A stretch of 64,000 nucleotides of DNA, taken from positions 692,001 through 756,000 of the forward strand of contig NW_026611617.1 of the NCBI RefSeq assembly GCF_028009165.1. The letters run 5' to 3'. Below are positions 11,432-59,772 of this stretch, one piece after another. Below the pieces are notes generated by a model. It had not been told where the DNA came from. It did not search any database and saw only the letters and a program-made list of their open reading frames with translations. Origin of the DNA: Akanthomyces muscarius. Taxonomy: Eukaryota; Ascomycota; Sordariomycetes; Hypocreales; Cordycipitaceae. The position numbers were made by a program, and so were the translations under genes. Positions within the stretch are counted from its first letter, which is position 1. Every line of letters starts with the position of its first letter.

Positions 11432-11455
11432 TTTATTTTATTTTATTTTATTTTA
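11432..11455. repeat. TTTTA microsatellite
   Basis: About five tandem copies of the pentamer TTTTA. Confidence 0.85.
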
Positions 11456-18953: not shown

Positions 18954-21186
18954 ATGCCGGCGGAACACAGCGCATCTCGCAGGCGGGGCGATTCCGAGCG
19001 CCAGCAGACACGGGGTCGACTCGCTTGTTTGCGCTGCCAGCGGCGAAAGATCCGTGTAAGCACAGCCAAGGAACCCGAGATTAGCAGCTAACCCTTCACA
19101 GTGCGACGGCGACTTGCCGACCTGCAAAAACTGCCGAAATGCAGGCGTTGTTTGTGCCGATGGTCTTAGTGCGCGTCTTAAGCACCTACCACGGGCGTGA
19201 GTGAGAACCACCTCGACTTGTGCAGACACTAACCTCGTCAAGCGAGATTTCAAGCCTCAAATCGCGCATCGTGTGGCTAGAGTCGATTCTTCGACAGAGG
19301 TGTCCTGAGGTCGATTTGGAAAATGGACAGCCGCAGGACATTGACCCGGCCATGCTAGACATGTCGTTGGAGCCGGACACCAGCATCATTACAAGTGTTG
19401 ATGACACTGCACAAATTATTACAGAACCTGAAGATCCCCCCGAAACATCTAGGCCGGCATTGGAGCAAGTACTGGGCGGCAACAGCTCGTCTGCGCATGA
19501 GATCGGTATGCTGTCGCTTGGTGCCAGCCAAGACTCGAGATATATAGGCCCATCAAGCGGTTACTTTCTCGCCAGAGTCATGTTGAGCAAAAACTGCGAC
19601 TCAATCAGCGGCGACGAGGCACAAAAGAACAACGTCTATATTCCAGGAGAGCTCATCGAATCCTGCACCGGACCGCTTCCCCTACCGCCGAGGCCGTTGG
19701 CCCAGCGGATCTGCGACGCCTACTTTGAGTTTATCCATCCACAGTACCCCATACTGCATCACCAGACGACCTTGGATGCCGTGGACCACATGTATCAAAA
19801 CGATAACGTGACTCCTGTCATGTCATTTCAGGTTTTCATGGTCCTTGCCGTCGGCGCGACAGCATTGTCCATGCGCTCCAAGGCTCGCTTACCCAATGAT
19901 TCTTACTGTCTCGCGGCGTTGGAGGCTTTTGCGCAGATCAACATCGAAAACTCAATACAGGGCCTTCAATGCTTGTTACTGCTTCTTGTGTTTGCACTGC
20001 ATAGCCCGTCTACCAGATTCAATGCGTGGTATCTTAACTATCAGTGCTTGGCTGCCGTGTTGGACTTGGGCTTGCAAAGAAACATCACAGTCAAGTCTGG
20101 AATTTCGCTGCTCCAGCAGGAAATGAGAACCAGACTCTTTTGGGTGTGTATACTTCTGGACAGAACGATCTGCACAATAATGGGGCGACCGATTGGCCTT
20201 CGCGACGAAGCCTGTGAGCTACGAGTAAGTAGATGCAGTGCTGTGGAGGACTACGCTGACAGGGACAGTTGCCGCTAGAGATTGAAGACGCCATGTTAAA
20301 TGTCCCGCAGGATGGTTCACCGAGCGAAAGGCCTCTTGGGGTCTCATACTCGATCCATCTCTTTCGCGCCACAAAGATCAACTCGGAAATTAAATATGTC
20401 GCCAACAGTATTGTCCAAGAGGCCCCGAGGTACGCGTACCCACCACAGACGGATATACACGGCTGGCAAAAGAATGTGCTGCAGCAGCTCGACGAGTGGC
20501 AATCAAACATTCCTTTGGACAGCCAAAACCCGAATGAGTTTATGCAACTTGTGTGCCAACTCCGCTACCACGGGCTCTGCCTGCTTCTGCTTCGGCCAAG
20601 CCCAGCCATACCCAAGCCCACGGCCGACGCCCTAGTGCGATGCTACAAAAGCGCCACCGAGAGCATCCAGATACTGGAGCAAATGTATCGGAAAAACCTT
20701 CTTATCCATAATTGGGTCAGCCTGCATGGTTTAGTTCTCGCCGTTTTGACTCTCCTCTACAGTGTTAGGGCAGAGCCCGAGGTGGCGCGGGTGACACAGG
20801 CCGATGCCCTCATGGGGACGATAGTTTCTGCGCTGGGCATCCTGAGTGCGACTGGAGAGCACTGGGCGGCTGCGAAGAGGTGTCGCGATATTCTTGAGGA
20901 CGCGGCAAAGTCTACTGTTCAGTGGCTGCAGAGCCAGTCGGCGCCGCCAAGCCTACTGCAGCCAGCCCACGGCCGCTCGAGATCCAGTCGTGCCAATGTG
21001 CAGTCTACAAATGAGGAGGCCCAACGAATCAATGAAGACATGGGCATGCCATGCTTTGATCCCGTGGAGATGGAAAACATGTTTCCGTCCTTTGATGGCT
21101 TGTTTGGAGACGGCGAGGCTGTGAACATTGATGTTATGATGCAGAGTCTATTCCAAGACTTTATACCGACCACAGGGCCTGAATAG
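18954..21186 (+). CDS. Zn2Cys6 transcription factor with fungal-specific TF domain
   Basis: Join(18954..19055,19102..19196,19243..20224,20269..21186) gives 698 aa. The zinc cluster is C25-x2-C28-x6-C35-x6-C42-x2-C45-x6-C52, followed by RLKHLPRA. The first intron (46 nt) splits it just before C35. A coiled linker ISSLKSRIVWLES follows, then the fungal-specific transcription factor domain with AYFEFIHPQYPILH, SMRSKARLP and RTRLFWVCILLDRTICTIMGRP. Intron 2 (19197-19242) ends in AAG after a perfect CACTAAC branch; an alternative acceptor 16 bases downstream is out of frame. Intron 3 is 44 nt. It probably regulates the adjacent dehydrogenase and permease; this is inferred from position only. Confidence 0.9.
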
Positions 21187-32458: not shown

Positions 32459-33396
32459 AATTGTTCGGTGTAAACAGTTTCCTCATTTGAACTAGACTTG
32501 TAATTATAATGAGAATGTGGCATCGGCTTCTGGATGAGGCCTGGCTCAAGCGAACCCTTTATAGCTGCTACTTGCTGTGTTGATGGAAAGGGAGGCCATC
32601 AGTAGAGTTCGAATGCCAGACACACGTGCGAACTTTCTGATCTACGCCTTTTGAAGCTAAGCGTACTTAGGGTATTTACTTGGAAAAATGTAAGTATTTG
32701 AGTGCCTATCGCCTCATAAATGGTGGATCCATGTTGCCGAGCGGTTGTGGTGGTACCAAGTACCAAGCCTTACATATGGTACGGCAGAGAGGACGCTACA
32801 ACAGAATCTCAACCTTGATTTCTAAAGTAGTACAGCCGCAGATGACGTGTATGCTGATTCGGCGCCCCCGCAGGGTTCGGGACATGAGTTTCCCCAAGGC
32901 TAGGAATACTGGGTACTGGTGCGACGGAGTGGTCGGAACATGGCCCGCAGGGCTAGATCATCGCTTACAGGGGTCGGTCGCTATTTAAAGGCAGTGCCGA
33001 TCCTTGCAAGCAGTATTCCTTTTCCCGGAAGTACCGGTGGTAGATACAACGGTAAGGAAAATTAGAGTGCGCACTGAGGCGTGATTGCATAGGCCGCGGC
33101 GGAGCGGGTAATTCGCATTGATCAGCGTCTAGTACGCTCGGTTAGATGTTGTCCAGATTAGACTTTTGCCATACAGGCATCTGCATATTACCTGTTAGCC
33201 CCACGCCCGTCATTCGGGCGAGCTAGCCCTGCAGGCCGATGTGGCATGCCCATCTCTCGCTAAGGTTTTGGCTCGGCGGCGTTCAGCGGAGTCCAGCGGA
33301 GTTTACAAATCCAATCTCTTATATCTGGCTTCAAATAAATGACTGGCATTGTGACATCAAACTTGCATGGGTCGGCCTCTCTGATCGGCATCGAAC
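32459..33396. other. Intergenic upstream of Zn2Cys6 gene
   Basis: A 938-bp gap. Only short, unconvincing ORFs. A TATTTAAAG box is seen near 32981. Confidence 0.55.
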
Positions 33397-35018
33397 ATGC
33401 AGGCGCCACAGACCGATAGCGGACTCCCACAAACGTCAAAGCTGTCATGCTTCTCCTGCAGGAATCGAAAACAGAGGTGTGACAGGCACTTGCCCAGCTG
33501 TTCAAGGTGTAAGAGGTATGCATCTCGGGAACTTGTTTCAATGAGAAAGAACCGAGCTAAGACTTCGTATAGGCTGCTACTTGATTGCGTCTATCCTAGG
33601 CGCGACTCCCAGGGCTTGAACGCAGAGCCTGGAGCGGGAATCGTGCCGAGCCTCAGCAGAGTAAAACCCGAAATCAAGAGATTACGGGATGACCTTCTCT
33701 GTCTTACCACCCAATTATGCCAGCCTCACTCCCCTCAGTTTATTTCATGTCATAGACAACTCTTCACCAGCATGTTGGAGAGCCACTTTTCGACTACTCA
33801 TATGTGGCTACCTCTAGTGCAGAAGACGTCTGTCGCTGAAAGACTAGATGGCTCACAGACACACCAAAGCCCGGCTTTTCTTCCCATGCTTTTAGCAATT
33901 TGCCTTAATAGTAAGGAAGTCTGCGGCATGGGATCTTTGCAAAGTCTCGAAGAGGCCTTGTTTGCTGCTGCAAAGAGATATTACTGGGGATCACAGCCGA
34001 CATCCGCCCCAGCCATGGAGCTGATTGTGGCCGGAATACTTTTATCAACGTACGAGTACGGGCATGGCTTAGCGCAGGAAGCCTACATGACCATCTCGAC
34101 GTGCACCGCTATGATTCAAGTTTCGGGTCTTCTTTCATACCACAAGAATCGGGTAGATGCATCCTCTGTGGTAGTAGAGCAGTCGCGCGCCGTGTGGGCT
34201 GCAATCATGATAGAGCGGTAAGGGTGATTCATCCCTAATATGATACTATGAGCGCTAATTCTGTGCTATCTTTAGGTTGATTGCATTAAAGGCAAATCAA
34301 AGAATCTGTTCATCACCTTTGACCAAGCTTATCGAAGCAGGCGCAGTAGGTACAAGCCACATCCAAGTCATGCACAGCGACAGCAGCAATACGACGAATG
34401 GTCGCATTTTGGGCAATCGAATTCGAGCAGTCACTCTGCTTGACGAAGTCCTGCACCTTGTTGGAGATGGAGATGGAAGCCTGCCAGTGACCGGTACGGC
34501 TTTCAATGCACTAGACGGGCAATTGATAGCGTTCTTAATGTCTCTGCTGGAACAGGATGCTCACACACTAGGATCTTGCTGCGAAGCAATGACCATCACT
34601 ACTCTGTATGCTATGCATCGGTGAGGCCAAAGTGATTATACTAACAACGCACAGTGCAATCATTCGCCTACATACTTATCGATTGCAGTGGATGACACGC
34701 GATTCACTATCTGCCTCCGATCGATTCACATCGTCTGCAACTTTAGAAAAGGTGGTCTGTATTACTCTCGAAAATGTAGAGGAGCATATGAGTAATGGCG
34801 CAGCCACGCAGTTTACGCATCGTCATGGTGACCAAACCCCTTACGCAGTTGAGTTGGTTCGTCAAGCTCTACGTCTGTCACTTGTTATGGGATTTGAAAA
34901 GCAGGGCTGTTTACATGAACACTCGAAGGACTACTTGCGGCGTCAAACATCACGATGGCCAATTGCGGCGGGTACAAACGGCCCATTGTGGGTGAAGGTA
35001 GTAACGCATACCTCCTGA
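33397..35018 (+). CDS. Zn2Cys6 transcription factor
   Basis: Join(33397..33515,33573..34217,34276..34605,34655..35018) gives 485 aa. The zinc cluster C18-x2-C21-x6-C28-x6-C35-x2-C38-x6-C45 is completed only after removing the 57-nt first intron (GTATGC...TATAG), which joins CSRCKR to LLLDCVYP. The rest resembles the shorter fungal TF middle region (HFSTTHMWLPLVQKTSV, LLAICL, AYMTISTCTAMIQVSGL, AVWAAIMIERLIAL). Intron 3 was set at 34606-34654 (GTATGC donor, ACTAAC branch, 49 nt) rather than a 34-nt alternative starting at 34621. The C-terminal end is uncertain, and a further intron after 34998 is possible. The neighbouring GMC oxidoreductase, 0.8 kb downstream on the same strand, is a likely target. 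Confidence 0.82.
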
Positions 35019-35842
35019 ATGCCCTTCTGGGGAACCATTCGATGAGCTCCTTCGGCAGCACTATAGTCCTAATTAGGCCAATATGCAACCTACTAGAATT
35101 CTTGCCAGTAAATGGGAAGCCCGTCGATCAAAAGTCCGCCGCTTCCACTGCTCCACTTATCGACCCCTGTAGCACTTGACTTTTTTGTAACTTATGCAAA
35201 TGTTAGGATTCAAATAGGCGGAGTTCTAAGTTAGACCACATAACGAGCTTAGACGATTAGAGTTTATCGGAGTTGGGGTTTAGTTCCCACGGTTAGTGGC
35301 CGCTTATAAATCTTATTTTGTTGTAACCAGGTAGCACGATATGTCGCCGCTTACCCGTCGGTCAAGTTTGTATGTTGACGGTACCACTTATCAAATTCAG
35401 CTACCAACCTATCGAGCACGTCCCCATTAGCAATAGGTTCTATTCATCTGACGCTTCGCTGGAAAATAACGTCGTGTTTAGTGGGCACCGTCTCTGCGGA
35501 AGTCCTGGAACTGGACTTGGCGGAGCTCCAACCAAGCTTATCGGCGTTCTCCCGGCAGTTTCAAAAATGCAGCTTAACCGAGATTTGAAGAGTCCTTGTA
35601 GATCTCAATCCTTTCTATCAACACTGAAGCACTGAATTTGTAATCATATGTCATAGACTGCTACGTAGTGCTCATGATTGGCCCCAGCGACGTCGACGCG
35701 AAGTCGGCTATCAGCTTCTGATCAACCGAAATGTTGCCGCGGCAGCTACGAGAATAAATAAGGCTGACAAGGTCTGGCGGCTCAAAGATTCTCAATTCTC
35801 GAAAAGCATTCGATTTTATGCAGTTACCGTTACCTCGTAATT
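35019..35842. other. Intergenic, TF to GMC gene
   Basis: An 824-bp gap. Only short ORFs without domain features. Confidence 0.55.
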
Positions 35843-37837
35843 ATGTTCACACGACACAAGAACCCTATACACAACCCTTTGCGTTATGCCGCAGCAGAAC
35901 GGCATTCTGGTCCTCCTGTTACGGTGGCGGCGGCGAGACGAACTTTGCCAACTTATGATTACGGTATGAATCACAATATAACCTGAAGTGTATCTGTAAT
36001 AACTAATACTTCTTCTTCTTTGACTCGCATAGTCATCGTTGGCGCTGGTACAGCTGGATGTGTGCTCGCTAGCAAGCTGTCCGAAGATCCTAATATAACT
36101 GTGCTTCTCCTCGAGGCTGGCGGAGACAATAACAAAGTTTTGGAGACAAAAGTACCTCTCATGTTTGCGAAACTTTTCCACACTAGCCACGACTGGAACT
36201 ACTATACCGCGGAACAGCAGTCTATTGCCGGACGCCGATTGTATTGGCCGCGAGGTCGAATTCTCGGTGGTTCATCATCATTAAATGCCATGATGTACCA
36301 TCATGCCTCGGCTTCGGATTTCGAGGAGTGGGTCACTGTGCATGGTTGCGAGGGCTGGGGATACAGCGATCTTGTTCCACACTTCCGAGCGGTTGAAAGA
36401 TTTACACCAAACCCGGCTCGGCCGGAGATTAATACAGATCACCACGGAGATGCCGGTCAATGGCACGTTGGCTACTCTTGGCTGTCCCCGATCGTTGAGG
36501 ACGGATTTCTCCCGGCTTGTCATGATGCTGGCATCAGTCCAAATAGTGACTTCAACTCGTCTGGTGTCAGTCTTGGTGTTTCTCGATTCCAAACTTTTAT
36601 AGACACCAAAGGCCAACGATCCTCACTTGCCACTGCGTTCCTCGACCCCGAAGTTATGAAACGACCGAACTTATATGTGGGCTGTGGGGCTTATGTCACG
36701 AAAGTATTGTTTGATCGAATCAACAACGAGAAGCCTACCGCGATTGGTATTGAGTTCCAAACTAGCCGAGACAGCGTACGCTATCACGTACATGCCAAGC
36801 GAGAGGTGATTCTTTCGGGAGGATCCATCAATACTCCTCAGATTCTTACATTAAGTGGCATCGGATCGAGAGAGGAACTACGAAAGCATGCAATTGGTTT
36901 TGTGCTTGCAAACGACCACGTGGGTAAATGGTTGAAAGATCATCTTTGCAGCAGCCCTATACAGTGCAAAACAAGGGCAGGGTTCTCACTTGACTATCTT
37001 GCGAACGAAGTCAAGGCTATTCCAGCTTTGGTACGATGGCTGTTGTTTGGAACCGGACCTCTTACTAGCAATGTAGGGGAAGCTGCTGCATTTGTCAGGT
37101 CATTTGAACAAGGGAGTTCAGGCTCGACTGACCAACCTCCAAAAGATTACTCTTCAGGAAAGAATGCACCGGACTTGGAAATCATCGCAGCTCCATTCAG
37201 TTTCAGCCACCACGGGGAAGAGCGACCTGTAGACCAGGCGGGCGTCTTCAGTTTCGTCCCGATTTGCCTTCGGCCACAGAGCAAAGGCACCGTCAGCCTC
37301 AAGAGCACAGACATTTTTGACCACCGTAAGACATATCCCAAAGCATTTGTTCTATATCTGGCATATCACCTTCCTGAATGTTCGCTGAGCTTTTCAAATC
37401 TAGCAATTATTGACCCCGAGTACCTCACTGATGAGGAGGACAATGACAAACGTGTCTTGATAGCGGGCCTCCGTCTTTGTCTCAAGATCATGCGCAGCCC
37501 ATCATTCGAGCGCTATTTCGAGCCGGTCCCGACTGATGATGATACTTCTTCATATTGGTGGCCGTATTCTTGCAGCGACCCCAATAGTATCACTGATGAG
37601 CAACTTGGTCGTTTTTTGGTCGAGCGGGCCTTTACGCTTTATCACCCTGTCGGCTCAGCACGTATGGGCCGTTCACCGTCTGACAGCGTTGTTGACTTGC
37701 AGTGTCGCGTGCACGGCACAAACGGTCTGCGCATTGTCGATGCGAGCATATTCCCGGAACAAATAAGTGGCCATCCGACTGCACCAATTGCTGCCATTGC
37801 CCACAAAGTTAGTGAGATGATTGCAAAGGCTAGATAA
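35843..37837 (+). CDS. GMC-family FAD oxidoreductase
   Basis: Join(35843..35963,36033..37837) gives 641 aa. The 69-nt intron (GTATGA donor, ACTAAT branch, GCATAG acceptor) joins TYDY to VIVGAGTAGCVLASKL, restoring the FAD-binding GxGxxG motif. Further GMC features: VLLLEAGG, the signature PRGRILGGSSSLNAMMYHH, the second signature SGGSINTPQILTLSGIG, and the C-terminal HPVGSARMG, LRIVDASIFP and GHPTAPIAAIA. The His of YHPVG is the expected catalytic base. The first 39 residues carry no clear secretion signal. Members oxidise alcohols or sugars (choline, aryl alcohol, glucose types); the substrate is not determinable. Confidence 0.92.
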
Positions 37838-38115
37838 ATATCATTTAGAGTACTTAGTCCGAGAAGATACCACGCTGCCTGGTAGAAAGACGGGTTTTCA
37901 GGCAGAGGTCAATATTTTGTGCATACACTGCCGGAGACCATAAACTATAGAAGCAATTTAAAAGTTGCACTGGCTCGGGAACTTTGCCCAGGATCTCCAG
38001 TGACAAAGGCTACACTGCCTCTAGCTGATACCTGCGCGACGTTGAGTCAGGTTTTGAAAGCATATCTAGTAGCACAAAAGTCACCCTCCTGCCGATTTGT
38101 TCTATTCCCAATGCT

Positions 38116-38954
38116 CTATGGCCCGAAATCATCAGCCACCTGAGCTTGTCGCTGAGGTTTGCCACAGATCCCGCCAACGATCATCAGCAACACAGCGCAA
38201 AGCTCCACGCCATACACAAGAACAACTTTCGTTGCGAGACTCCCACCCATGGGATCGAGACTGTGTAGCCTAGAAAACGCAAATGTAACTTCGTGTGCGA
38301 TGCGTATGGCGTGGAATACAAACGCAACACCGGCAGCAAGAAGCATCACGTATGCGCCAAAGTATGTCTTCGTCGAGCGATATGACCAAATGTGGCGTGC
38401 GGTCCAGCCGAGCCAGCCACAAAGCACGACGAGAGCCGCGATGACAACGAGATAGCCAATCTTAGCGAGCATTGCATTCTTCACGCCACTTTCTGTAGAG
38501 TCATCGCGAGTGCCTCCATATGAAGCCACGCCGATGCCAGCAATGTTGATGAGATGACCGGTACCCAGAATGATGCGTTGTCCCAGCCATTGGGGCTTAC
38601 GTCGGGTGATGATATTCCTGTCAATAATGTTAGAAAAGACAGGTAGTTGTGGTATGCCACTTACACTTCATACGCCACTCCGATCAGCGCCAGTGTCAGG
38701 CAAGTCACCAGCCCAGCGTCGACTGTGGATGTGAAGCCGTTTCCCACCATCGGGTCATGGCGTCGCATTATAATGTACACGTCTCCTGCAATGCGAAGTC
38801 CAAGATAGCTGAGGAGAAGCGGCCAGCATAGAAGCCCTTTTTTGCCGTGTTTCCAGGTGATCCATGCCACGAGGGGTACAAGGACAGTGTGAACTGCGAC
38901 GCTTGCAATAGCAAGATTGATGCTGCTGGTGGGGTTCGGGATTGCCGACATCAT
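38116..38954 (-). CDS. Seven-TM integral membrane protein (DUF7702-like)
   Basis: Complement(join(38116..38617,38665..38954)) gives 263 aa. The 47-nt intron has a GTAAGT donor, TCTAAC branch and GACAG acceptor. About seven hydrophobic segments are visible, starting with LAIASVAVHTVLVPLVAWI and LLLSYLGLRIAGDVYII, and ending with VVLVYGVELCAVLLMIVGGI. The layout matches a family of fungal integral membrane proteins of about 260 aa of unknown function that often sit beside secondary-metabolism genes. It is divergent from the CmcJ-like oxygenase and shares a promoter containing two exact ATGCGAAACCGA motifs. Function unknown. Confidence 0.85.
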
Positions 38955-39387
38955 ATCGAAGAAAAGTCAAACAGGAGAATTACTTGGTGAGAATGATATG
39001 ATGATACTTGCGTGAACTGCTTCATTTATGAGCAAGCTTGTGATGGCATCTGGTGGTTCACGGTTGGACTCGTCTTGCTTATTTATGAAAGGCTCGTGTC
39101 TGGCTTTACTCTACCAGCCCACTACTTATCTCATTCAGCCCTGCCAAGGAGTCGTGGCTAATGCGAATCGGCAGTTGTGAGTAGAGCAGAAGCCAGTGGC
39201 ACAAGCCGGTCATCCCGGATGAAATTGATCGGGATAAGGAATGTATCCTGCGACTTGCCATGTCCCGATCGTTTCTTACTGGCGAAAAGGCCCCTGATCG
39301 GCGAAAAAGCCCCTGATGCGATTTACCAGCTTGTTGGGGTGTCTTGATTAGTGGCTGGGCTCAATTGGGAAGACCAATAGGGCGAGG

Positions 39388-39399
39388 ATGCGAAACCGA
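39388..39399 (+). promoter_or_regulatory. ATGCGAAACCGA motif, copy 1
   Basis: Exact 12-mer, left arm of the 13-bp inverted repeat, 304 bp upstream of the oxygenase start and 434 bp from the 7-TM start. Contains a CGG/CCG triplet as expected of a Zn2Cys6 target. Confidence 0.6.
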
Positions 39400-39446
39400 A
39401 GCGCTAACCCACGCGGAAGCCGCAGCAAAGACATCGCAAGTGCCAT

Positions 39447-39458
39447 TCGGTTTCGCAT
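39447..39458 (-). promoter_or_regulatory. ATGCGAAACCGA motif, copy 2
   Basis: Exact reverse complement (TCGGTTTCGCAT on +), right arm of the inverted repeat, 245 bp upstream of the oxygenase start. Confidence 0.6.
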
Positions 39459-39702
39459 GCGATAGCTATTGGCTCGTTGAGAATTCAATCCGCCGTCATA
39501 ATTTGCCGTATGCGACGTGCCTCCGTTGCACTTCCATAGCAACATGCAACTATATATAGACAAGCCTTACTGTTTGCATAATACCTAATCTACCATACTT
39601 TTACACTCGTCTGCAAATTCACATCTCATCTGTCTCATTCGAAAATCTATTTTCTCTGCTTCTACTCTACTCCAGATTGGTTCAACTACAATACACAGCA
39701 AA

Positions 39703-40770
39703 ATGACTGTCGCAGGCATGTCAACTGAGCGACGCCGTCGGGATGTGCACGCCACGATGCATTTTCTAGAGAGAGAATGCACTCCCGAGCAGCTCAATGC
39801 CAGCAGGAGCCTTGCGTGAGACATACATCAACGTTCATGACATGCGCTAATGGTCAAAGTACTCCCAACGGATATGGCGAGCTCGATGACGCCAAGAGAG
39901 TCGTGGTACACGACGTCACTGGCAATGAGGCTCACTTGACGCTGGACAATTCTGCCTTTTGTTACGTCAACCACGAAAGCGGCATAAACATGGAAATGAC
40001 AGATGAAGAAATTAAGCTCAAATACTATCCCGAGACGGCGGAAATGATACAGAAGATGTACAATATGCTTCCCGCTAGTTGTATCTCCAGCTAATCATCG
40101 ACAGCACGGGAGCGTCCCTCGTCCATGTTTTCAACCATCTTCGCCGTGTCAGTCATGGCGACAATCCACAAGCACTCGGTGGGAAGGATACGACACATCA
40201 TCAGGCGTATAAAGTGCACGTGGACCAGTCTTGGCAACAGGTAAAAGAACATGTCATGGCTGCATTTGGCGACGAGAGCATGATGAAGCAGCGCTTCCAA
40301 ATTATTAATGTATGTGCTGTCCGAATGTGTTGTCCATGGCAATACAACTCTCGAGTCGCATGCTGACGATTTGCTAGGTCTGGCGTCCGATGCGTCAGGT
40401 ATACAAGGATCCGCTCGCCGTCACGGATATTCGCACGCAGGAATCGAATGATCTGGTTCGCATTGATGTCACGCTCACGGACGGCGTCAAGACGTCTAAC
40501 CTGGCTGTGCGACACAACGACCGCCAAAAATGGTACTACAAGCATGCTCAGAAACCAGATGAGCCGCTCGTGTTCAAACAATTTGATAGCGCCGATCGCT
40601 CATGTCTTGGTCAAGTGCTCCACTCAGCATTCATCGACGAGGAGTACAACAATGGCGACCCTCGCTGGAGTATCGAGGCACGGGCGCTGGTATTCTACGA
40701 GGATCAGCAGGGTATCCAGCCAGAGGAGGTTTTTGATGATGGATACGGTGCGCAGGTAAGAGATGGTTAA
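39703..40770 (+). CDS. CmcJ/NvfI-like oxygenase (GA4-desaturase/asaB family)
   Basis: Join(39703..39815,39860..40057,40105..40309,40378..40770) gives 302 aa. Introns are 44, 47 and 68 nt; the first ends in AAAG. Family features in order: VVVHDVTGNEAHLTLDNSAF, a YYPE motif in KLKYYPETAEMI, ITGASLVHVFNH, YKVHVDQSW (HxD metal-binding pair), FQIINVWRPM, DPLAVTDIRT, KWYYKHAQKPDEPLVFKQFDS and a later LHSAF. This matches the fungal CmcJ/NvfI family (cephem methoxylase P8, GA4 desaturase, asaB), non-haem Fe(II)/2-oxoglutarate-type or related enzymes of secondary metabolism. The typical PHTAF reads LHSAF here, with the expected distal His retained. It is probably cytosolic. Confidence 0.9.
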
Positions 40771-41408
40771 TTGGACAGTCGTGCGTTGCGCTGTTGCACT
40801 GGAAGTTGTGGCTTGAAACAGGGTGCTGTAAATAGGTGCCCTAGCGCGTAGCAACGACTGATCGAGGGCGAGCCTCTACTAAATTGAGATTGTTCATCAG
40901 AATGACATGCGCAAGAGAGTCCGTCGTAACAAAGCAGGCACAAATGAAACTGTTACGCGTATACTGAGTAATGTGGCTGGCACTATCATCGTATGACGAT
41001 CAGGATAGACAACGCATTTGACACTAGCTGCTACTGTTGAGCCAAAAAGAAGACCCTTGACAGAGTTTGTACATCATCCCTTATCTACTTTAAAGCAGCC
41101 CGGGAAATAAGGTTGTGGCGCCAGCGTTGCCGAATCGAGCATAGTTGAGATCGCGGAGCAAAACTCTCGGTTTCGGTTCCTCCTGTGACTGGTGCAAGCG
41201 TTACGAGGCGCTGAGACAGGTCCACCAGCCAGCTCTGTCACAGACGCTCGAGACTCTACTCCGCCACCACCGACGCGACAGGGCAATGGCTAATGATGAG
41301 CATCGCTTCGGCATTTGACATGATGATGCCTCTTTATTATCTGCACATCACCTCGGTTTCGCATTCAATGCTATTTCCAACAATTGTCTTTCCTCAATGC
41401 CAGCGTAG
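40771..41408. promoter_or_regulatory. Upstream region of Zn2Cys6 gene with motif copy 3
   Basis: A 638-bp gap. The only notable element is the motif at 41353-41364, 45 bp before the regulator start. Confidence 0.5.
41353..41364 (-). promoter_or_regulatory. ATGCGAAACCGA motif, copy 3
   Basis: TCGGTTTCGCAT on the + strand, 44 bases ahead of the Zn2Cys6 start at 41409. A site this close could mediate autoregulation. Confidence 0.6.
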
Positions 41409-42626
41409 ATGAGTCGTTTAGGCTATCACAAATCTCGCAACGGCTGCGCAAGATGCAAGCAAAGACGCGTCAAGGTATGTGGGATGATGAGGCTGCCCCC
41501 TGCTTTCCTACGTAGCCGCTGACAGCTTTGCCAGTGTGACGAAGAGAAGCCATGCTCGGCATGTAGGCGGCATGGTATCCCGTGCACTCTCGGCGGCAGC
41601 AGCCCGTCGCAGGATCCGGCGGTCCCTCCCGTCCGTCGAGTAAGCAAGGCTCGGTCGGCGCGCCGTGCGAGAGATCGGGACTCTCCCACGGACAAATTCC
41701 CCTACCTGACTAGCTTCATCACGAAGCCGACGGAAGAAAGCACCCCGTCAGCCTGGCTAGCGGACCTGGAGCTGATGCACCATTTCACCGCCACCGCCTA
41801 CACTTACCTGCCGCGCGGCGCGGCTCGTCAAAATGTCTGGCAACTCGTGGTCCCTAGGCTAGCTCTGGAGCACAGCTACCTCATGCATCAGATCTTGGCC
41901 ATGTCGGCATTTCACATGGTGACGCTGCATCCGGATCGCCGGGGGTGCTACTCCGTCTCGGCGACAAACCATCAAGACGAGGCTATACGAGGTCTGCGTC
42001 AGGTGCTGACGACCGTCAATGACACAAACTGCCATGCTGTGTTTGCAACCTCGTCGCTTCTTTGCATTGGCGTATTTGCGAGCTCAGCCGCGAGCGTTAT
42101 GCAGAATGGTCTGCCTGGCATGGAAGATCTGCTTGAAGTATTTTCGATGCTACGCGGCATGCACAGCCTCCTACAAAAGCATGAGCACATAATAAAGGAT
42201 GGACCTCTGGGCCCGATCTTACGACTTGACCATCACCAATCCGAAACGGCCCTACTTTCGTCGATAGTGCGCCTTGCCAAAGATCTACGAATGCCCCGTG
42301 CCACTTTTCCGTCTACTGAGGCATCATGTCGCAACGCGGCGGAGGGTTTGGTAGAATGCATTGAACATGCCAATGCCAGCACAGATATCCCTGAACTGAG
42401 GGTGACAACGACGTGGCCGATTGGTCTTACTCGAGAGTATATCGATCTATTGCGCTTACATGACCCTGCAGCAAAGGTGGTTCTGTCATTGTATTGCCAA
42501 ATACTAGAGCATGTAGGCTCACGATATTGGTATCTTGAGGGATGGAGCCGGGGCGTCATGAGTGATGCAGGCTGGACTCAGCAGTTATCCATGCGTGAAC
42601 AGATACCCAGCCCCCGTATCTCGTAG
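41409..42626 (+). CDS. Zn2Cys6 transcription factor
   Basis: Join(41409..41474,41535..42626) gives 385 aa. The 60-nt intron (GTATGT donor, GCTGAC branch, TGCCAG acceptor) splits the zinc cluster right before the third Cys; the joined cluster is C13-x2-C16-x6-C23-x5-C29-x2-C32-x6-C39. The start MSRLGYHKSRNGCARCKQRRVKC is typical of the sterol-uptake/UPC2-like subgroup of fungal regulators. The region after residue 110 (LMHHFTATAYTYLPRG, HSYLMHQILAMSAFHMVTLHP) fits the fungal-specific TF domain of that subgroup. It lies inside the motif-linked gene set and is the obvious candidate regulator. Confidence 0.9.
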
Positions 42627-42842
42627 TCCAAATGTAGTGTCAGTGCTTGTCCTCGGCTGGTTACGGATCCGCGAATATTTCAGAGCTGAATGAGCATCTT
42701 TCTATGGTTTAAACTAATCATATCTCGTTATCGCACTCGGATGCGCCGTATACAAATTCGAAACGACGAATACATGGGCCTTGCAGTTGGCACTACCATG
42801 ATCTTGGCAATACTCGCAGCAGGGCTGCCCAATGGGCGTTGG

Positions 42843-42854
42843 ATGCGAAACCGA
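42843..42854 (+). promoter_or_regulatory. ATGCGAAACCGA motif, copy 4
   Basis: Exact 12-mer, 246 bp upstream of the 4-TM gene start, followed by GCGCT as at copy 1 (which has AGCGCT). Confidence 0.6.
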
Positions 42855-42948
42855 GCGCTGATTTTAGCGCTGATTTTTCTCTTGGTCCAGAATAGCCGTT
42901 GCAATAGCCTCTTTCGCATCTCATCATGGCGCAGCTGGCAGGGCCGCA

Positions 42949-42960
42949 AGGCGAAACCGA
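42949..42960 (+). promoter_or_regulatory. ATGCGAAACCGA-like motif, copy 5 (one mismatch)
   Basis: AGGCGAAACCGA, 11 of 12 matching, followed by ATGG. The extended GCGAAACCGAATGG is an exact match, inverted, to the sequence at copy 2 (39443-39456). Confidence 0.5.
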
Positions 42961-43099
42961 ATGGTCGCGTTCGACGAGCCAAACAAAGAGCCGCGATTCT
43001 AACACAAGAAAAATATAACATATATTGTTGATGAATCGCTTTACAATGCCTACAATGCAAATCTCCTAGATTCACTTCTTCTTTCGACCGTTCTCCAAC

Positions 43100-43684
43100 A
43101 TGCCTTACGCCTCGCAAATCACGCGCTTCATTTGGCCTCAGTACAAGCTGCACTTGCATGTGGTCCAGATCTTGTTGACCACTGTCATCATGATTTTAGC
43201 CATCATCAAGCTAGCAACGCTCACCCGGACCGCCCCAAGAACGAGGTCCAACACAATTGCCCTTGGCATGGTACGATAAATTCGCCAACCGTCATGAAGC
43301 CTTCGCACTAACACGCTACTAGGGCGCCAAGTCCCTCGTCATCATCTTGTACCAAGTATGCACCGAGCATGTGGCGCGCCTGCGAAAGTACCACAGCTAC
43401 AAGGCCAATCTTATACTTAATTCTTTGGAGATTGTTTTCTGGGCAGCCGTTGCTTTTTTGACCATGCAGGCGAATCTGAAATCCTGCTCTGGCATTGGCT
43501 GCGGAGTTGGCTGGGCTATTTTTGTGATGGCAATCTTCCAAAGGTGCGTCTAAACTGCAGTTTGTATACGACATCTGGCTGACTGACAAATACTAGCATG
43601 CTGGCTTCTTATGCCGCCATGATTTCATTTGTGGATTATCGACGGTTTCGCTATCAGCTCAAGGCATCCGATGTCTCGCCATGA
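43100..43684 (+). CDS. Small four-TM membrane protein (MARVEL-like layout)
   Basis: Join(43100..43270,43323..43543,43597..43684) gives 159 aa. Introns are 52 and 53 nt (GTACGA...TACTAG; GTGCGT...TACTAG). Four hydrophobic segments are visible: HLHVVQILLTTVIMILAIIKLA, SLVIILYQVCTEHV, LILNSLEIVFWAAVAFLTM and VGWAIFVMAIFQSMLASYAAMI. Size and topology are those of MARVEL-type fungal membrane proteins, but the identity is not firm. Upstream motif copies 4 and 5 tie it to the neighbouring regulator and oxygenase. Function unknown. Confidence 0.82.
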
Positions 43685-44846
43685 TTCCAGGCATCTGGAG
43701 TGCCTATCCGGCTCGATAGAAAGTTGATATTGGATATGGAAAAGATCGTAGACCTGTGCCTTTGTACACGCACGTGTCCACCTCATCGCAGCCTCTTACA
43801 CGGCTTTTACGTTTCTTTTTATTAATGTAATTCGTTATATAGCCAACCAAGCCTCATCTATCTTACCAGTCACTCTTTGCAACATTTGCAGTCCATTTGT
43901 CAGTGTGCGGCACATGTACAGGCTTTTTAAGCTGGCTGGTCTTATTCACCTTTTTGAGCATCGCCTTCACTTCGAGCCGGGTGACGACGACGACAATTAC
44001 TGGTCCTACTTCCCCTCGATTGATTGCATGAGGCGCTCGGTCATTTGCTTGGCCGTCGCCGAAGAAGATGCATGGTGGATCGACAAGACGCACGCTGCCG
44101 GTGTAAATTGACCAGTGCGATGACCTCTAGTAGTGCCGACCCGCTGGACGACTAGGTTGGGCCGGCATTTCTGATGTTGTTTTAATCCCTGGCTGGTTTC
44201 TTCTGTGGAGCTCTACTCCGCCGTAACTCCGCCCGCAGATTTACGAAGTAATGTCTATCCCCCAGAGCTTGCCATTTCCTAGTTTCCAGGTCCGCCAGCT
44301 TTTAAAAGTACAGCTACTGTCAGAGTATTCGCTCAACTGAGGTTTCTTCCACCGCTCCATCGCTGCTCGGTGCCAATTGTCGAGGTAGAGACAAATATAA
44401 ACGCGGCCCTTTGATTCAATGCAACAGCAACCATGATCAGATCGTGGCGGACAGAATGTCGACTGCGGCCTTGCTAGCTGACAATCTCGCCATGCCCGGG
44501 AGACTGCAGTACAAGAACTGCTCGGAGCACACTTCTGTGATCATGAAGCATATGGGGAAATGCATGCTGCTAACTTTAAGAAACCCGCGATTGGGAAACA
44601 ATGGGAGTGGAGGGTTGTCAAACGGCATAGCAAGCCAAGTCGTAGAGTATGACACGTCCTTTGTAATGGTCGTTTTGATAGACGCGCCCGATTTATAAGC
44701 TCCACCGCGGAGGACTAGTTCATCGGCCGAAAAGCTTATAGCTCTTCTATTAGGATAAAAAGCGAGATATTACCCTCCTGAGCGGAGTGTTTTTAGCCAG
44801 CCTATCTCCTTCCTACGCTGACTCGTCTGCATCACCATTTCCAGCC
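43685..44846. other. Intergenic, 4-TM gene to NmrA-like gene
   Basis: A 1.16-kb gap. Only short ORFs. A perfect CCGCGG-centred palindrome CTCCACCGCGGAGGA lies near 44700. No copy of the ATGCGAAACCGA motif was seen here. Confidence 0.55.
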
Positions 44847-45791
44847 ATGGCTCCTACCATCCTCATCGCCGGCGCTACTGGCAATACCGGACGAGGCGTC
44901 GTTGAAACCTTGTCGGATCTTCTGAGAACCAACATCACCCTTTCCGGCCACAGAATCCTTGCTCTTACACGTTCCTCTGGCGGGGCTATAGCTCAGAAGC
45001 TCGCGGCCTTGCCCAACGTCGAGATCGCAGAAAAGAACTGGGTCGATGTCACCGCGGACTGGCTGCGGCACAACAATGTCGTGAGAGCATTTATTGCTTC
45101 GCACAACAACCCCAATCAATTTGCTGAAGAATCGACATTCCACCTGGCCGCCCTCAAAGCGGGCGTCGAGTATGTCGTGCGAATCTCAACAACCGCCGCG
45201 AACGTGCGTCCGGATTGCCCTGCCTACTATCCGAGGACGCACTGGGCTATTGAAGCCATGCTGAGCTCGCCGGAGTTCGAGCATCTGCGATGGACTTCGT
45301 TACAGCCGAATGTCTTTTCGCAATTCTATCTTTCTCCTGCCGCCGAGCTGATCAAAAACTTCTGCAAGACCGGGAAGCAGGATACCCTGAGGCTGATGGC
45401 TTCAGAGGATGCGCCTGTAGGCATCATCGACTCGAATGACGTCGGAGTTTTCGCAGCACACCTCTTGACCGCGGATGATGTTGCCCCTCACAACAAGGCT
45501 AAATACGTATTAAACGGACCGGAGGATATCACCGGGCGCCAAATTGTTGCCCTGGTTGAGAAGCACATTGGCACCAAAGTTGAGGATGTTCGCTTCAAGG
45601 ACCTATCATTCGTCGACCACATGGCAGCCCAAGCTCAGGACTCCAAGAGTGTTGTTATGTCGATCAAGTTTGCCCTGGAAACAGCCTGGGAGGGAAAGTG
45701 CGGAGCTTCCACAATGAGCAAGAAGGTCATTCAGCTAGCTGCGCCGAAACGTATACCTACTGAAGTTTTCAAGACAATGCTGGAGGAGTAG
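44847..45791 (+). CDS. NmrA-like family NAD(P)-binding protein
   Basis: A single exon of 314 aa. It starts MAPTILIAGATGNTGRGVVETL with the GxxGxxG dinucleotide motif, followed by HRILALTRSSGG, PNVEIAEKNWVD, and RISTTAANVRPDCPAYYPRTHWAIEAML, where isoflavone-reductase/NmrA proteins keep their H-x3-E helix. VGIIDSNDVGVFAAHLLT and YVLNGPEDITGRQIVALVEK are typical of the C-terminal part. Members are either NAD(P)-sensing regulators or reductases such as isoflavone or festuclavine types. No substrate can be inferred. The start at 44847 lies in an AGCCATGG context. Confidence 0.9.
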   Translation: MAPTILIAGATGNTGRGVVETLSDLLRTNITLSGHRILALTRSSGGAIAQKLAALPNVEIAEKNWVDVTADWLRHNNVVRAFIASHNNPNQFAEESTFHLAALKAGVEYVVRISTTAANVRPDCPAYYPRTHWAIEAMLSSPEFEHLRWTSLQPNVFSQFYLSPAAELIKNFCKTGKQDTLRLMASEDAPVGIIDSNDVGVFAAHLLTADDVAPHNKAKYVLNGPEDITGRQIVALVEKHIGTKVEDVRFKDLSFVDHMAAQAQDSKSVVMSIKFALETAWEGKCGASTMSKKVIQLAAPKRIPTEVFKTMLEE

Positions 45792-58671: not shown

Positions 58672-59772
58672 TTACAGAGCATAGGCAGCGAGAGCGGCAG
58701 CGACGGCGGCGAGGCCGAAGCTGTTGACGTTGCCATCACCGCTCTTAGGGGGGTTGGTGGAGGTGGGGGTGGCAGTCGCGGAGCCGGAGCCGGTCATGGA
58801 GCCAGAGGTCATGGAGCCGCCGCCGTTCATGGAGCTGGTGCCGGTGGGCATCATGGAGCCGGACGAGGTCATGCTCATGGTGCAGTTGCCGGGGGCGACA
58901 GCCTCGGCGTAGGCGTCGCACTTGGCGTCCTTGGCCTCGTCGCAGCCGGACTTGATGCAGATGGCCTGGGGCTGGGCGCCCTTGCCCTTGATGACCTCGG
59001 CGGGGGCGCTGCAGCGCATGTTGAAGGTGTCGCCGAGAGCCTTGCCGACGGCGGTGATGTCGTCCTTGGCGACGCCGAACGAGGCGGCGGCCATGGCGAC
59101 CTGGGCGATGAAGTAGTCCATCTCGGGCTTACCCAGGTTCATGAACTTGTGGACCTTGTACATGGAGGGGTTGCCGTCGTAGGCATCGAAGCCAGACATG
59201 CCCTGCTTGGTGCAGCCGAGCAGGGTGCCGAAGAACTGGTACAGATGGGTGAGGAGGAAGCTGTGGGCAAGTTGTTAGCGTCATGAACGAGCTTTTGTTG
59301 CGTGCCGTAGCCGGGACGAAAACATACTACTGGTTGGACTTCTCGTCGTTGGCGGGCTTGTTGTTCATCAGGGGCTCGGCGGCACCGCCATCGAGGAAGT
59401 TGACGCAAGTGGCCTTATCGCCACGGTTGGTCGAGGCCAGCATGCCGTTGAAGTAAGGAGCCAGGTTGACCTTGGTGCCGTCCTGCTCACCCTCCTTGAG
59501 GATACCGGGGACCGAGACGCCGACATTGGGCATGGTGTCTGTTTTGCGCGTTAGTACAAATGAGCCCCAGTTGCTTCGAGTATCCTCGGAAGGGACGCAC
59601 AATTGCCAATGACGACGGTGTTGACGAGAAGAGTCAAGAGCGTGGCCTGGTTCTCGGCCGTGTTGTTCTTGAGGAGAGCAGTGGTGTAGTAGTCGCAGAT
59701 GGGCGTGTCCGAGGGGCGCTGGGCGTTGGCGACAGTGGCCGCGGCGGCGACGGCAATGGTAGAGAAACGCAT
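58672..59772 (-). CDS. Secreted GPI-type protein, unknown family
   Basis: Complement(join(58672..59260,59328..59538,59601..59772)) gives 323 aa. Introns are 62 and 67 nt (GTGCGT...AACAG; GTATGT...CACAG). It has a clear signal peptide MRFSTIAVAAAATVANAQ, a Cys-containing central domain (CDYYTTALLKNNT, CVNFLDGG, LLGCTKQGMSGFDAYDG, YKVHKFMNLGKPEMDYFIAQVAMAAASFGV), a Ser/Gly/Met/Thr-rich linker and a C-terminal hydrophobic tail FGLAAVAAALAAYAL, typical of GPI anchoring. Codon usage is strongly GC3-biased, which suggests high expression. The central domain recurs in hypothetical secreted fungal proteins, but I know no function. Confidence 0.88.

What the first reader, a model, noticed from the sequence alone, without database searches (positions are those of the whole stretch)
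39388..42960. A 12-bp motif, ATGCGAAACCGA, links four neighbouring genes into a likely regulon
Four exact copies (39388-39399, 39447-39458, 41353-41364, 42843-42854) and one 11/12 copy (42949-42960) fall in the intergenic regions of a 7-TM protein, a CmcJ/NvfI-like oxygenase, a Zn2Cys6 regulator and a 4-TM protein. I saw none in the other intergenic regions. A random 12-mer is expected about 0.008 times in 64 kb (both strands), so the clustering is not chance. It includes a CGG triplet, as Zn2Cys6 targets do, and lies 44 bases before the regulator itself, suggesting an autoregulated pathway-specific switch.
Basis: partly seen in the sequence, partly recalled or inferred. Interest (0 to 1): 0.78.

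Follow-up and report, generated by a model that had tools for sequence, protein, structure and literature searches.

The report
Paired promoter motif marks a mini-cluster
Four neighbouring genes of a fungus closely related to the insect-infecting Akanthomyces lecanii carry the same short DNA tag in their promoters, half of the time at a fixed distance from a CCAAT box, which looks like the landing site of the cluster's own switch protein beside a general helper complex: a neat, testable and basically ordinary kind of fungal gene control.

Summary
Observation confirmed. Four exact copies and one 11/12 copy of ATGCGAAACCGA lie where stated. In the 36.19-Mb genome the exact 12-mer occurs 11 times, 4 of them here, and the core 328 times, so 0.03 would be expected in this stretch: no dispersed repeat. 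New: in three of six sites CCAAT stands exactly nine bases before the 12-mer, same orientation. CCAAT-N9-ATGCGAAACCGA occurs exactly three times in the genome, all here, with no one-mismatch copy; CCAAT is the only pentamer that three sites share at one offset. Most likely these are binding sites of the local Upc2-like Zn2Cys6 regulator (41409-42626), three of them composite with the CCAAT-binding complex, serving a DUF7702 protein, a CmcJ/NvfI oxygenase, a MARVEL-like protein and the regulator itself. Regulator and MARVEL-like homologues share a contig in five records. Binding, co-expression and motif conservation were not testable. A new member of a known kind (compare AmdR with AnCF; T. reesei cbh2).

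The parts
38116..38951 (-). 7-TM protein, DUF7702 (262 aa; intron 38618-38664)
   Evidence: gene model; Pfam PF24800 E 8e-16
39374..39399 (+). composite element 1: CCAAT-N9-ATGCGAAACCGA, in the divergent promoter, pointing to the oxygenase (motif end at -304 from its ATG)
39447..39472 (-). composite element 2: CCAAT-N9-ATGCGAAACCGA, in the divergent promoter, pointing to the DUF7702 gene (motif end at -496 from its ATG)
   Evidence: inverted-repeat partner of element 1, 27-nt arms 78% complementary
39703..40770 (+). CmcJ/NvfI family oxygenase (302 aa; introns 39816-39859, 40058-40104, 40310-40377)
   Evidence: gene model; NCBIfam NF041278 186 bits, cut-off 80; solved 2-OG dioxygenase 7eus E 1.6e-30, NvfI E about 1e-11; no Pfam match
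41167..41192 (-). core site CGAAACCGA (41167-41175) in the regulator promoter, with CCAGT (one base off CCAAT) in the same 9-base register
41353..41364 (-). exact 12-mer in the regulator promoter, 44 bases between it and the ATG; no CCAAT at the fixed offset
41409..42626 (+). Zn2Cys6 regulator with Upc2-like C-terminal part (385 aa; intron 41475-41534)
   Evidence: gene model; Pfam Zn_clus and Fungal_trans_2; solved Upc2 chains E 1.3e-12
42829..42854 (+). composite element 3: CCAAT-N9-ATGCGAAACCGA, pointing to the MARVEL-like gene (motif end at -246 from its ATG)
42949..42960 (+). 11/12 copy with intact core CGAAACCGA before the MARVEL-like gene; no CCAAT at the fixed offset
43100..43684 (+). 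4-TM MARVEL-like protein (159 aa; introns 43271-43322, 43544-43596)
   Evidence: gene model; 97% to LEL_09060, named 'MARVEL-like domain' by UniRef, among 70 homologues; no Pfam or NCBIfam match of its own

Best explanation
The six CGAAACCGA copies are the binding sites of the Zn2Cys6 regulator encoded in the middle of the cluster (41409-42626). In three of them a CCAAT box exactly nine bases upstream of the 12-mer makes a composite element, on which the CCAAT-binding complex (HAP/NF-Y) and the regulator dock side by side. One composite faces each structural gene: oxygenase, DUF7702 gene and MARVEL-like gene. The two sites before the regulator lack a true CCAAT box and would give feedback on the regulator. 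Shown: the words, their clustering, location, exclusivity to this locus and the fixed CCAAT spacing. Inferred: who binds, that binding activates, and that an Upc2-like domain senses a lipid or related ligand.
For: Clustering: 6 of 6 core copies of the window in 3.57 kb, all intergenic; 328 in 36.19 Mb, 0.032 expected here; 4 of the 11 exact 12-mers of the genome. CCAAT-N9-12-mer: 3 of 3 exact genome matches are here, none with 1 mismatch, five with 2. CCAATN{0,30}CGAAACCGA has 16 genome matches; a gap of 12 is found only in the 3 here, the other 13 being scattered over ten other gaps. CCAAT is the only 5-mer shared by at least 3 of 6 sites at one offset: about 0.2% of 20000 random draws give any such 5-mer, none gives CCAAT. 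The regulator with an intact zinc cluster lies among its sites. Regulator and MARVEL-like homologues lie on contigs of equal length in 5 records (110 and 70 proteins compared), with consecutive locus tags in F. decemcellulare (FDECE_9838/9837) and A. lecanii RCEF 1005 (LEL_09061/09060). One NF-YA/Hap2-type match in the genome. Precedent: AmdR and AnCF at amdS (titles in the reference lists of PMC8939176 and PMC7078317; that AmdR is a zinc-cluster protein is recalled); HAP2/3/5 with XYR1/ACE2 at T. reesei cel6a/cbh2 (PMC3731814, passages).
Against: No binding, expression or mutation data. Only 3 of 6 sites have the CCAAT box; the regulator's own promoter has none (one CCAGT). The C-terminal part of the regulator resembles Upc2, whose yeast site is TCGTATA. 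The oxygenase list shares no contig length with the regulator or MARVEL-like lists (120 of 532 oxygenase hits were listed). No orthologous promoter could be read. Other zinc-cluster proteins nearby (33385-34221, and a Fungal_trans piece at 19205-20278) or elsewhere in the genome could be the binder. CCAAT within 30 bases of the core is also commoner than the reversed control outside this locus (13 against 4), so proximity alone is not special, only the repeated spacing.
Confidence: 0.62

Rival explanations
1. The motif is a cluster-specific binding site, but of another factor (a different Zn2Cys6 protein or other DNA-binding protein of the genome), and the local regulator is only one of its targets.
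For: 23 of the 25 genome stretches that match the regulator query lie outside this gene, several on the zinc cluster (52-54% at C4:3804290, C1:6420695, C6:3723392); other zinc-cluster-type genes lie in the window; the Upc2 site reported in yeast is TCGTATA.
Against: A factor serving many loci should leave further clustered or composite sites; none was seen. The sites surround this regulator gene and include its own promoter.
Confidence: 0.2
2. The CCAAT boxes are bound by the CCAAT-binding complex with a bZIP partner of HapX kind (iron control), and the 12-mer is part of that bipartite site.
For: HapX acts with CCAAT boxes at defined spacing (C(C/A)AATCA-N11-12-GAT; PMC4528345, passage); the core here begins 12 bases after CCAAT.
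Against: No match to that consensus or to CCAAT-N16-GATC in 38952-43100 on either strand; the conserved part is CGAAACCGA, not GAT; three of six sites have no CCAAT.
Confidence: 0.06
3. The copies are remnants of a small duplicated or mobile sequence and have no regulatory role.
For: 39367-39399 and 42822-42854 can be aligned over 33 nt at 76%; 39443-39456 and 42951-42964 share 14 bases.
Against: Similarity is carried by CCAAT and the 12-mer: outside them the 33-nt pair has 4 of 7 and 4 of 9 identical bases (my count). Copies lie on both strands and only in intergenic DNA (6 of 6; 0.0014 by uniform placement over 38116-43684). No further composite copies with 0 or 1 mismatch in the genome.
Confidence: 0.06
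4. Chance clustering picked out by eye.
For: The word was chosen after reading the sequence; at two mismatches the excess is not significant.
Against: It is the only 12-mer with at least 4 copies in 64 kb, 0 of 100 shuffles reach the one-mismatch count, and the CCAAT register is a further surprise found afterwards.
Confidence: 0.01

Closest known systems
AmdR/AnCF control of A. nidulans amdS (seen only as reference titles in PMC8939176 and PMC7078317)
   Same: A CCAAT-factor site adjacent to the site of a pathway-specific regulator; the complex is required for activation by that regulator, according to the titles.
   Different: Here the spacing is repeated exactly in three elements of one small cluster, and nothing is experimentally shown.
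T. reesei cbh2/cel6a promoter (HAP2/3/5 with XYR1 and ACE2; PMC3731814, passages)
   Same: Expression depends on a CCAAT box that lies in one binding area with zinc-cluster regulators.
   Different: Other recognition words (GGCTAA and the like), other genes.
TerR and the terrein cluster (TCGGHHWYHCGG; PMC12848540, passages)
   Same: Zn2Cys6 regulator inside its cluster, sites in the promoters of most needed genes, bidirectional promoters, site begins TCGG.
   Different: TCGG-N5-CGG against TCGG-TTT-CG(C/G); no TerR match in 38952-43100; no fixed CCAAT partner in the passages read.
Yeast Upc2/Ecm22 and A. fumigatus RttA (sterol uptake control proteins; PMC3334620 and PMC12505884, passages)
   Same: The regulator's C-terminal part matches solved Upc2 chains over residues 91-209.
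   Different: Upc2 binds TCGTATA; the only copy in 38952-43100 lies inside the regulator gene, not in a promoter. Sterol binding was not tested.

Membership tests
Self-regulated gene cluster with pathway-specific Zn2Cys6 regulator | Zn2Cys6 regulator encoded inside the cluster | tested here: met
   Zn_clus 37.6 bits, Fungal_trans_2 41.5 bits
Self-regulated gene cluster with pathway-specific Zn2Cys6 regulator | common site in the promoters of the cluster genes and the regulator, enriched over the genome | tested here: met
   6 core sites in 3 intergenic regions; 0.032 expected
Self-regulated gene cluster with pathway-specific Zn2Cys6 regulator | the regulator binds the site and the genes depend on it | not testable with these tools
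   needs a binding assay and a deletion strain
Self-regulated gene cluster with pathway-specific Zn2Cys6 regulator | site conserved in orthologous loci | not testable with these tools
   no relatives of this genome are held; only proteins of relatives were reached
CCAAT-binding-complex composite element | CCAAT box at fixed distance and orientation to a second site | tested here: met
   3 of 6 sites, 9 bases to the 12-mer
CCAAT-binding-complex composite element | complex present in the organism | tested here: met
   CBFB_NFYA, one match, E 6e-27; the other subunits were not searched
CCAAT-binding-complex composite element | occupancy by the complex | not testable with these tools
   needs ChIP or in vitro binding
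HapX/CBC bipartite site | C(C/A)AATCA-N11-12-GAT or CCAAT-N16-GATC | tested here: not met
   no match in 38952-43100, both strands
Upc2 / sterol uptake control family | zinc cluster plus Upc2-like C-terminal domain | tested here: met
   solved Upc2 chains 7vpr and 7vpu, E about 1e-12, mainly over residues 91-209; zinc cluster
Upc2 / sterol uptake control family | sterol regulatory element TCGTATA in target promoters | tested here: not met
   one copy in 38952-43100, inside the regulator gene
Upc2 / sterol uptake control family | ergosterol as ligand | not tested
   no structure was modelled
CmcJ/NvfI oxygenase family | match above the curated cut-off of NF041278, with the H-x-D and later H of the solved relative | tested here: met
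   186 bits, cut-off 80; HVD and HS aligned to 7eus; that these bind the metal is recalled
Secondary-metabolite gene cluster | backbone enzyme (PKS, NRPS, terpene cyclase) in the cluster | tested here: inconclusive
   none among 30 further window frames of 141-492 aa and 6 proteins; stop-to-stop pieces are not a full annotation

The most novel reading that the evidence does not exclude
A fixed two-part code (CCAAT, nine bases, ATGCGAAACCGA) recruits the general CCAAT-binding complex as obligate partner of a sensor-type (Upc2-like) zinc-cluster regulator, and controls an old regulator-MARVEL membrane module, joined in Akanthomyces by a CmcJ/NvfI oxygenase and a DUF7702 protein, that makes or handles a membrane-active small molecule outside the classical backbone-enzyme clusters.
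Probability: 0.22. Interest if true: 0.5.

Novelty: new member of a known kind. Interest (0 to 1): 0.3.

Why it matters
Small clusters without a backbone enzyme may escape cluster finders that rely on one. Here a promoter word confined to one locus suggests the borders (DUF7702 gene to MARVEL-like gene, leaving out the GMC oxidoreductase and NmrA-like neighbours) and names the likely switch. The repeated CCAAT spacing also gives a clean test of whether a zinc-cluster regulator needs the CCAAT-binding complex at a set distance.

Tried and rejected
Second regulon loci: of the 7 exact 12-mer copies outside the locus, 6 were read in 3-kb loci and the seventh in L058; all 7 lie inside some stop-to-stop frame of at least 80 codons. 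Nine 10-kb stretches around near-matches or pairs and beside the window were fetched (C2:2001417/2003789, C1:2436093/2439458, C10:758515, C2:2970916/2971722, C4:4768316/4768977, C11:220684, the 10 kb before the window, C5:2374905/2378159, C1:5337784/5337835). They hold 2, 1, 0, 1, 0, 1, 0, 2 and 2 exact cores in that order; in the last two, three of four cores sit in frames of 898 and 885 codons. The 10 kb on each side of the window hold no exact core, though the downstream one holds a two-mismatch composite at C10:758515. Core places elsewhere on C2-C11 were not all listed (one search shows the first 100 of 328), so a second cluster of cores is not formally excluded; the GCGAAACCGA list (74, all shown) has no other group of three within 4 kb.

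At three mismatches the composite has 74 genome matches against 48 for the reversed control: no sign of a wider regulon.

Paralogous cluster in the same genome: no other MARVEL-like match at E <= 0.01; oxygenase and DUF7702 paralogues lie elsewhere, scattered.

Literature: the core word is in 153 papers, of which I saw the listing of 20, none on fungal promoters by title. CCAAT with Zn2Cys6 and 'fixed spacing' found 0 papers. Searches gave precedents and background; in the listings and passages I saw, no element of this sequence. The F. graminearum cluster-motif paper (PMC4198257, passages) holds none of the words CGGTTT, AAACCG, CGAAA or CCAAT. All papers were seen as listings or as passages found by term (PMC4198257, PMC4528345, PMC12848540, PMC3731814, PMC6652802, PMC12505884, PMC3334620, PMC7078317, PMC8939176, PMC11354060), none whole.
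Full report
Source. The window is 64 kb of a 36.19-Mb, 12-contig genome (C10:692001-756000). The regulator is 98% identical (over 90% of its length) to LEL_09061 and the 4-TM protein 97% to LEL_09060 of Akanthomyces lecanii RCEF 1005, so the organism is an Akanthomyces or very near one; the name of the assembly is not given.

The word. ATGCGAAACCGA is present four times exactly and once with one change, at the coordinates of the finding. The invariant core is CGAAACCGA (reverse TCGGTTTCG): six copies in the window, all between 39391 and 42960, where shuffles give a mean of 0.48 in the whole window. No other 12-mer has four copies in the window. With two mismatches allowed the excess is no longer significant (10 against 5.87), so the signal lies in near-exact copies.

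Genome scale. The exact 12-mer occurs 11 times in the genome, four of them here; with one mismatch allowed there are 135 matches against 140 for the reversed pattern, so outside the locus it is background. The core occurs 328 times (168 + 160; reversed control 622); 0.032 would be expected in 3.57 kb, six are found. The seven exact 12-mers elsewhere all lie in some open frame of at least 80 codons.

A second element. Aligning the six sites shows CCAAT exactly nine bases before the 12-mer, in the same orientation, in the elements 39374-39399 (+), 39447-39472 (-) and 42829-42854 (+); the 41167 site has CCAGT in that place. The pattern CCAAT-N9-ATGCGAAACCGA has three exact matches in the genome, all here; none has one mismatch, five have two. 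Letting the gap vary from 0 to 30, CCAAT...CGAAACCGA has 16 matches in the genome against 4 for the reversed control; a gap of 12 is used only by the three here. The opposite orientation of the box has 8 matches against 4, no gap being used more than twice. Among pentamers within 60 bases of the core and outside the 12-mer, CCAAT is the only one that three of the six sites share at one offset; about 0.2% of 20000 random draws from the same intergenic DNA share any pentamer in this way and none shares CCAAT. The spacer letters differ, so this is not one copied block. Against it: three sites lack the box, among them both sites of the regulator promoter.

Layout. The two composites of the divergent promoter form a large inverted repeat (arms 39374-39400 and 39446-39472), one pointing to the oxygenase and one to the DUF7702 gene; the third points to the MARVEL-like gene. 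In the composites the order is thus CCAAT, then 12-mer, then gene, if each is assigned to the gene it points to. The two regulator-promoter sites point away from the regulator. For the neighbours outside (GMC oxidoreductase frame 35987-37837, NmrA-like protein 44847-45791) no core copy, even at one mismatch, was found in 34900-35990, 37835-38115 and 43685-44846.

Genes. DUF7702 7-TM protein, 38116-38951 minus (PF24800). Oxygenase, 39703-40770 plus: NCBIfam CmcJ/NvfI family, aligned to a solved 2-OG dioxygenase with the HVD and the later H kept. Regulator, 41409-42626 plus: Zn_clus and Fungal_trans_2, matching solved Upc2 chains mainly over residues 91-209. 4-TM protein, 43100-43684 plus, whose near-identical relative a source names MARVEL-like. 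No backbone enzyme of secondary metabolism was seen in the 36 frames or proteins scanned. Gene models are mine, without transcript data.

Conservation. Regulator and MARVEL-like homologues lie on contigs of equal length in 5 records (110 and 70 proteins compared): A. lecanii RCEF 1005, an unnamed contig of 18641 bases (source 'lgn'), Biscogniauxia marginata, Camillea tinctor and Fusarium decemcellulare, with consecutive locus tags in RCEF 1005 and F. decemcellulare. Equal length is taken as the same contig. That pair seems old (Hypocreales and Xylariales, by my own knowledge). The 120 listed oxygenase hits of 532 share no contig length with either list; the RCEF 1005 record, where oxygenase and regulator are annotated as one 652-aa protein, was above that search's length limit. 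The zinc cluster and the stretch before it (PRLGY-KSR-GC-RCKQRRVKCDE) are nearly unchanged in 8 of the 9 proteins aligned (the window's and 8 chosen of 110 homologues), the ninth (P0011) lacking it in its annotation, so relatives may bind a similar word. Their DNA could not be read here.

Mechanism. Best reading: the local regulator binds the core; the CCAAT-binding complex, whose NF-YA-like subunit is encoded in the genome, sits at a set distance on three sites and helps to open or hold the promoter, as described for HAP2/3/5 at T. reesei cel6a (PMC3731814, passages) and, by title, for AnCF with AmdR. The regulator's own two sites without CCAAT box would give feedback. In 38952-43100 there is no HapX or TerR consensus, and the single yeast-type Upc2 word lies inside the regulator gene. 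Binding and co-expression remain inferred.

Verdict. It is a good example of a known kind of control with one clean feature, the fixed CCAAT register, worth a bench test.

Noticed in passing
window 40755-41535: In A. lecanii RCEF 1005 the oxygenase and regulator are annotated as one 652-aa protein (P0001), which leaves out the first half of the zinc cluster and would make the regulator promoter with its two core sites an intron; P0002 (LLEC1_02116) keeps a separate start like my model. Probably an annotation error.
   Followed up: partly
window 42570-42626: The last residues of the regulator differ from both A. lecanii orthologues, as if read in another frame near the C-terminus; real difference or sequencing error not settled.
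   Followed up: no
window 33385-34221 and 19205-20278: Two further pieces of zinc-cluster-type regulators (Zn_clus; Fungal_trans) lie in the same window.
   Followed up: no
window 39281-39317: Two nearly identical 18-base units (GGCGAAAAGGCCCCTGAT, 94%) stand 19 bases apart, about 60 bases before the first composite element of the divergent promoter.
   Followed up: no
window 11432-11455 and 58794-58859: Besides the motif, the densest repeated 9-mers of the window are a TAAAA tandem run and four copies of GCTCCATGA within 57 bases.
   Followed up: no
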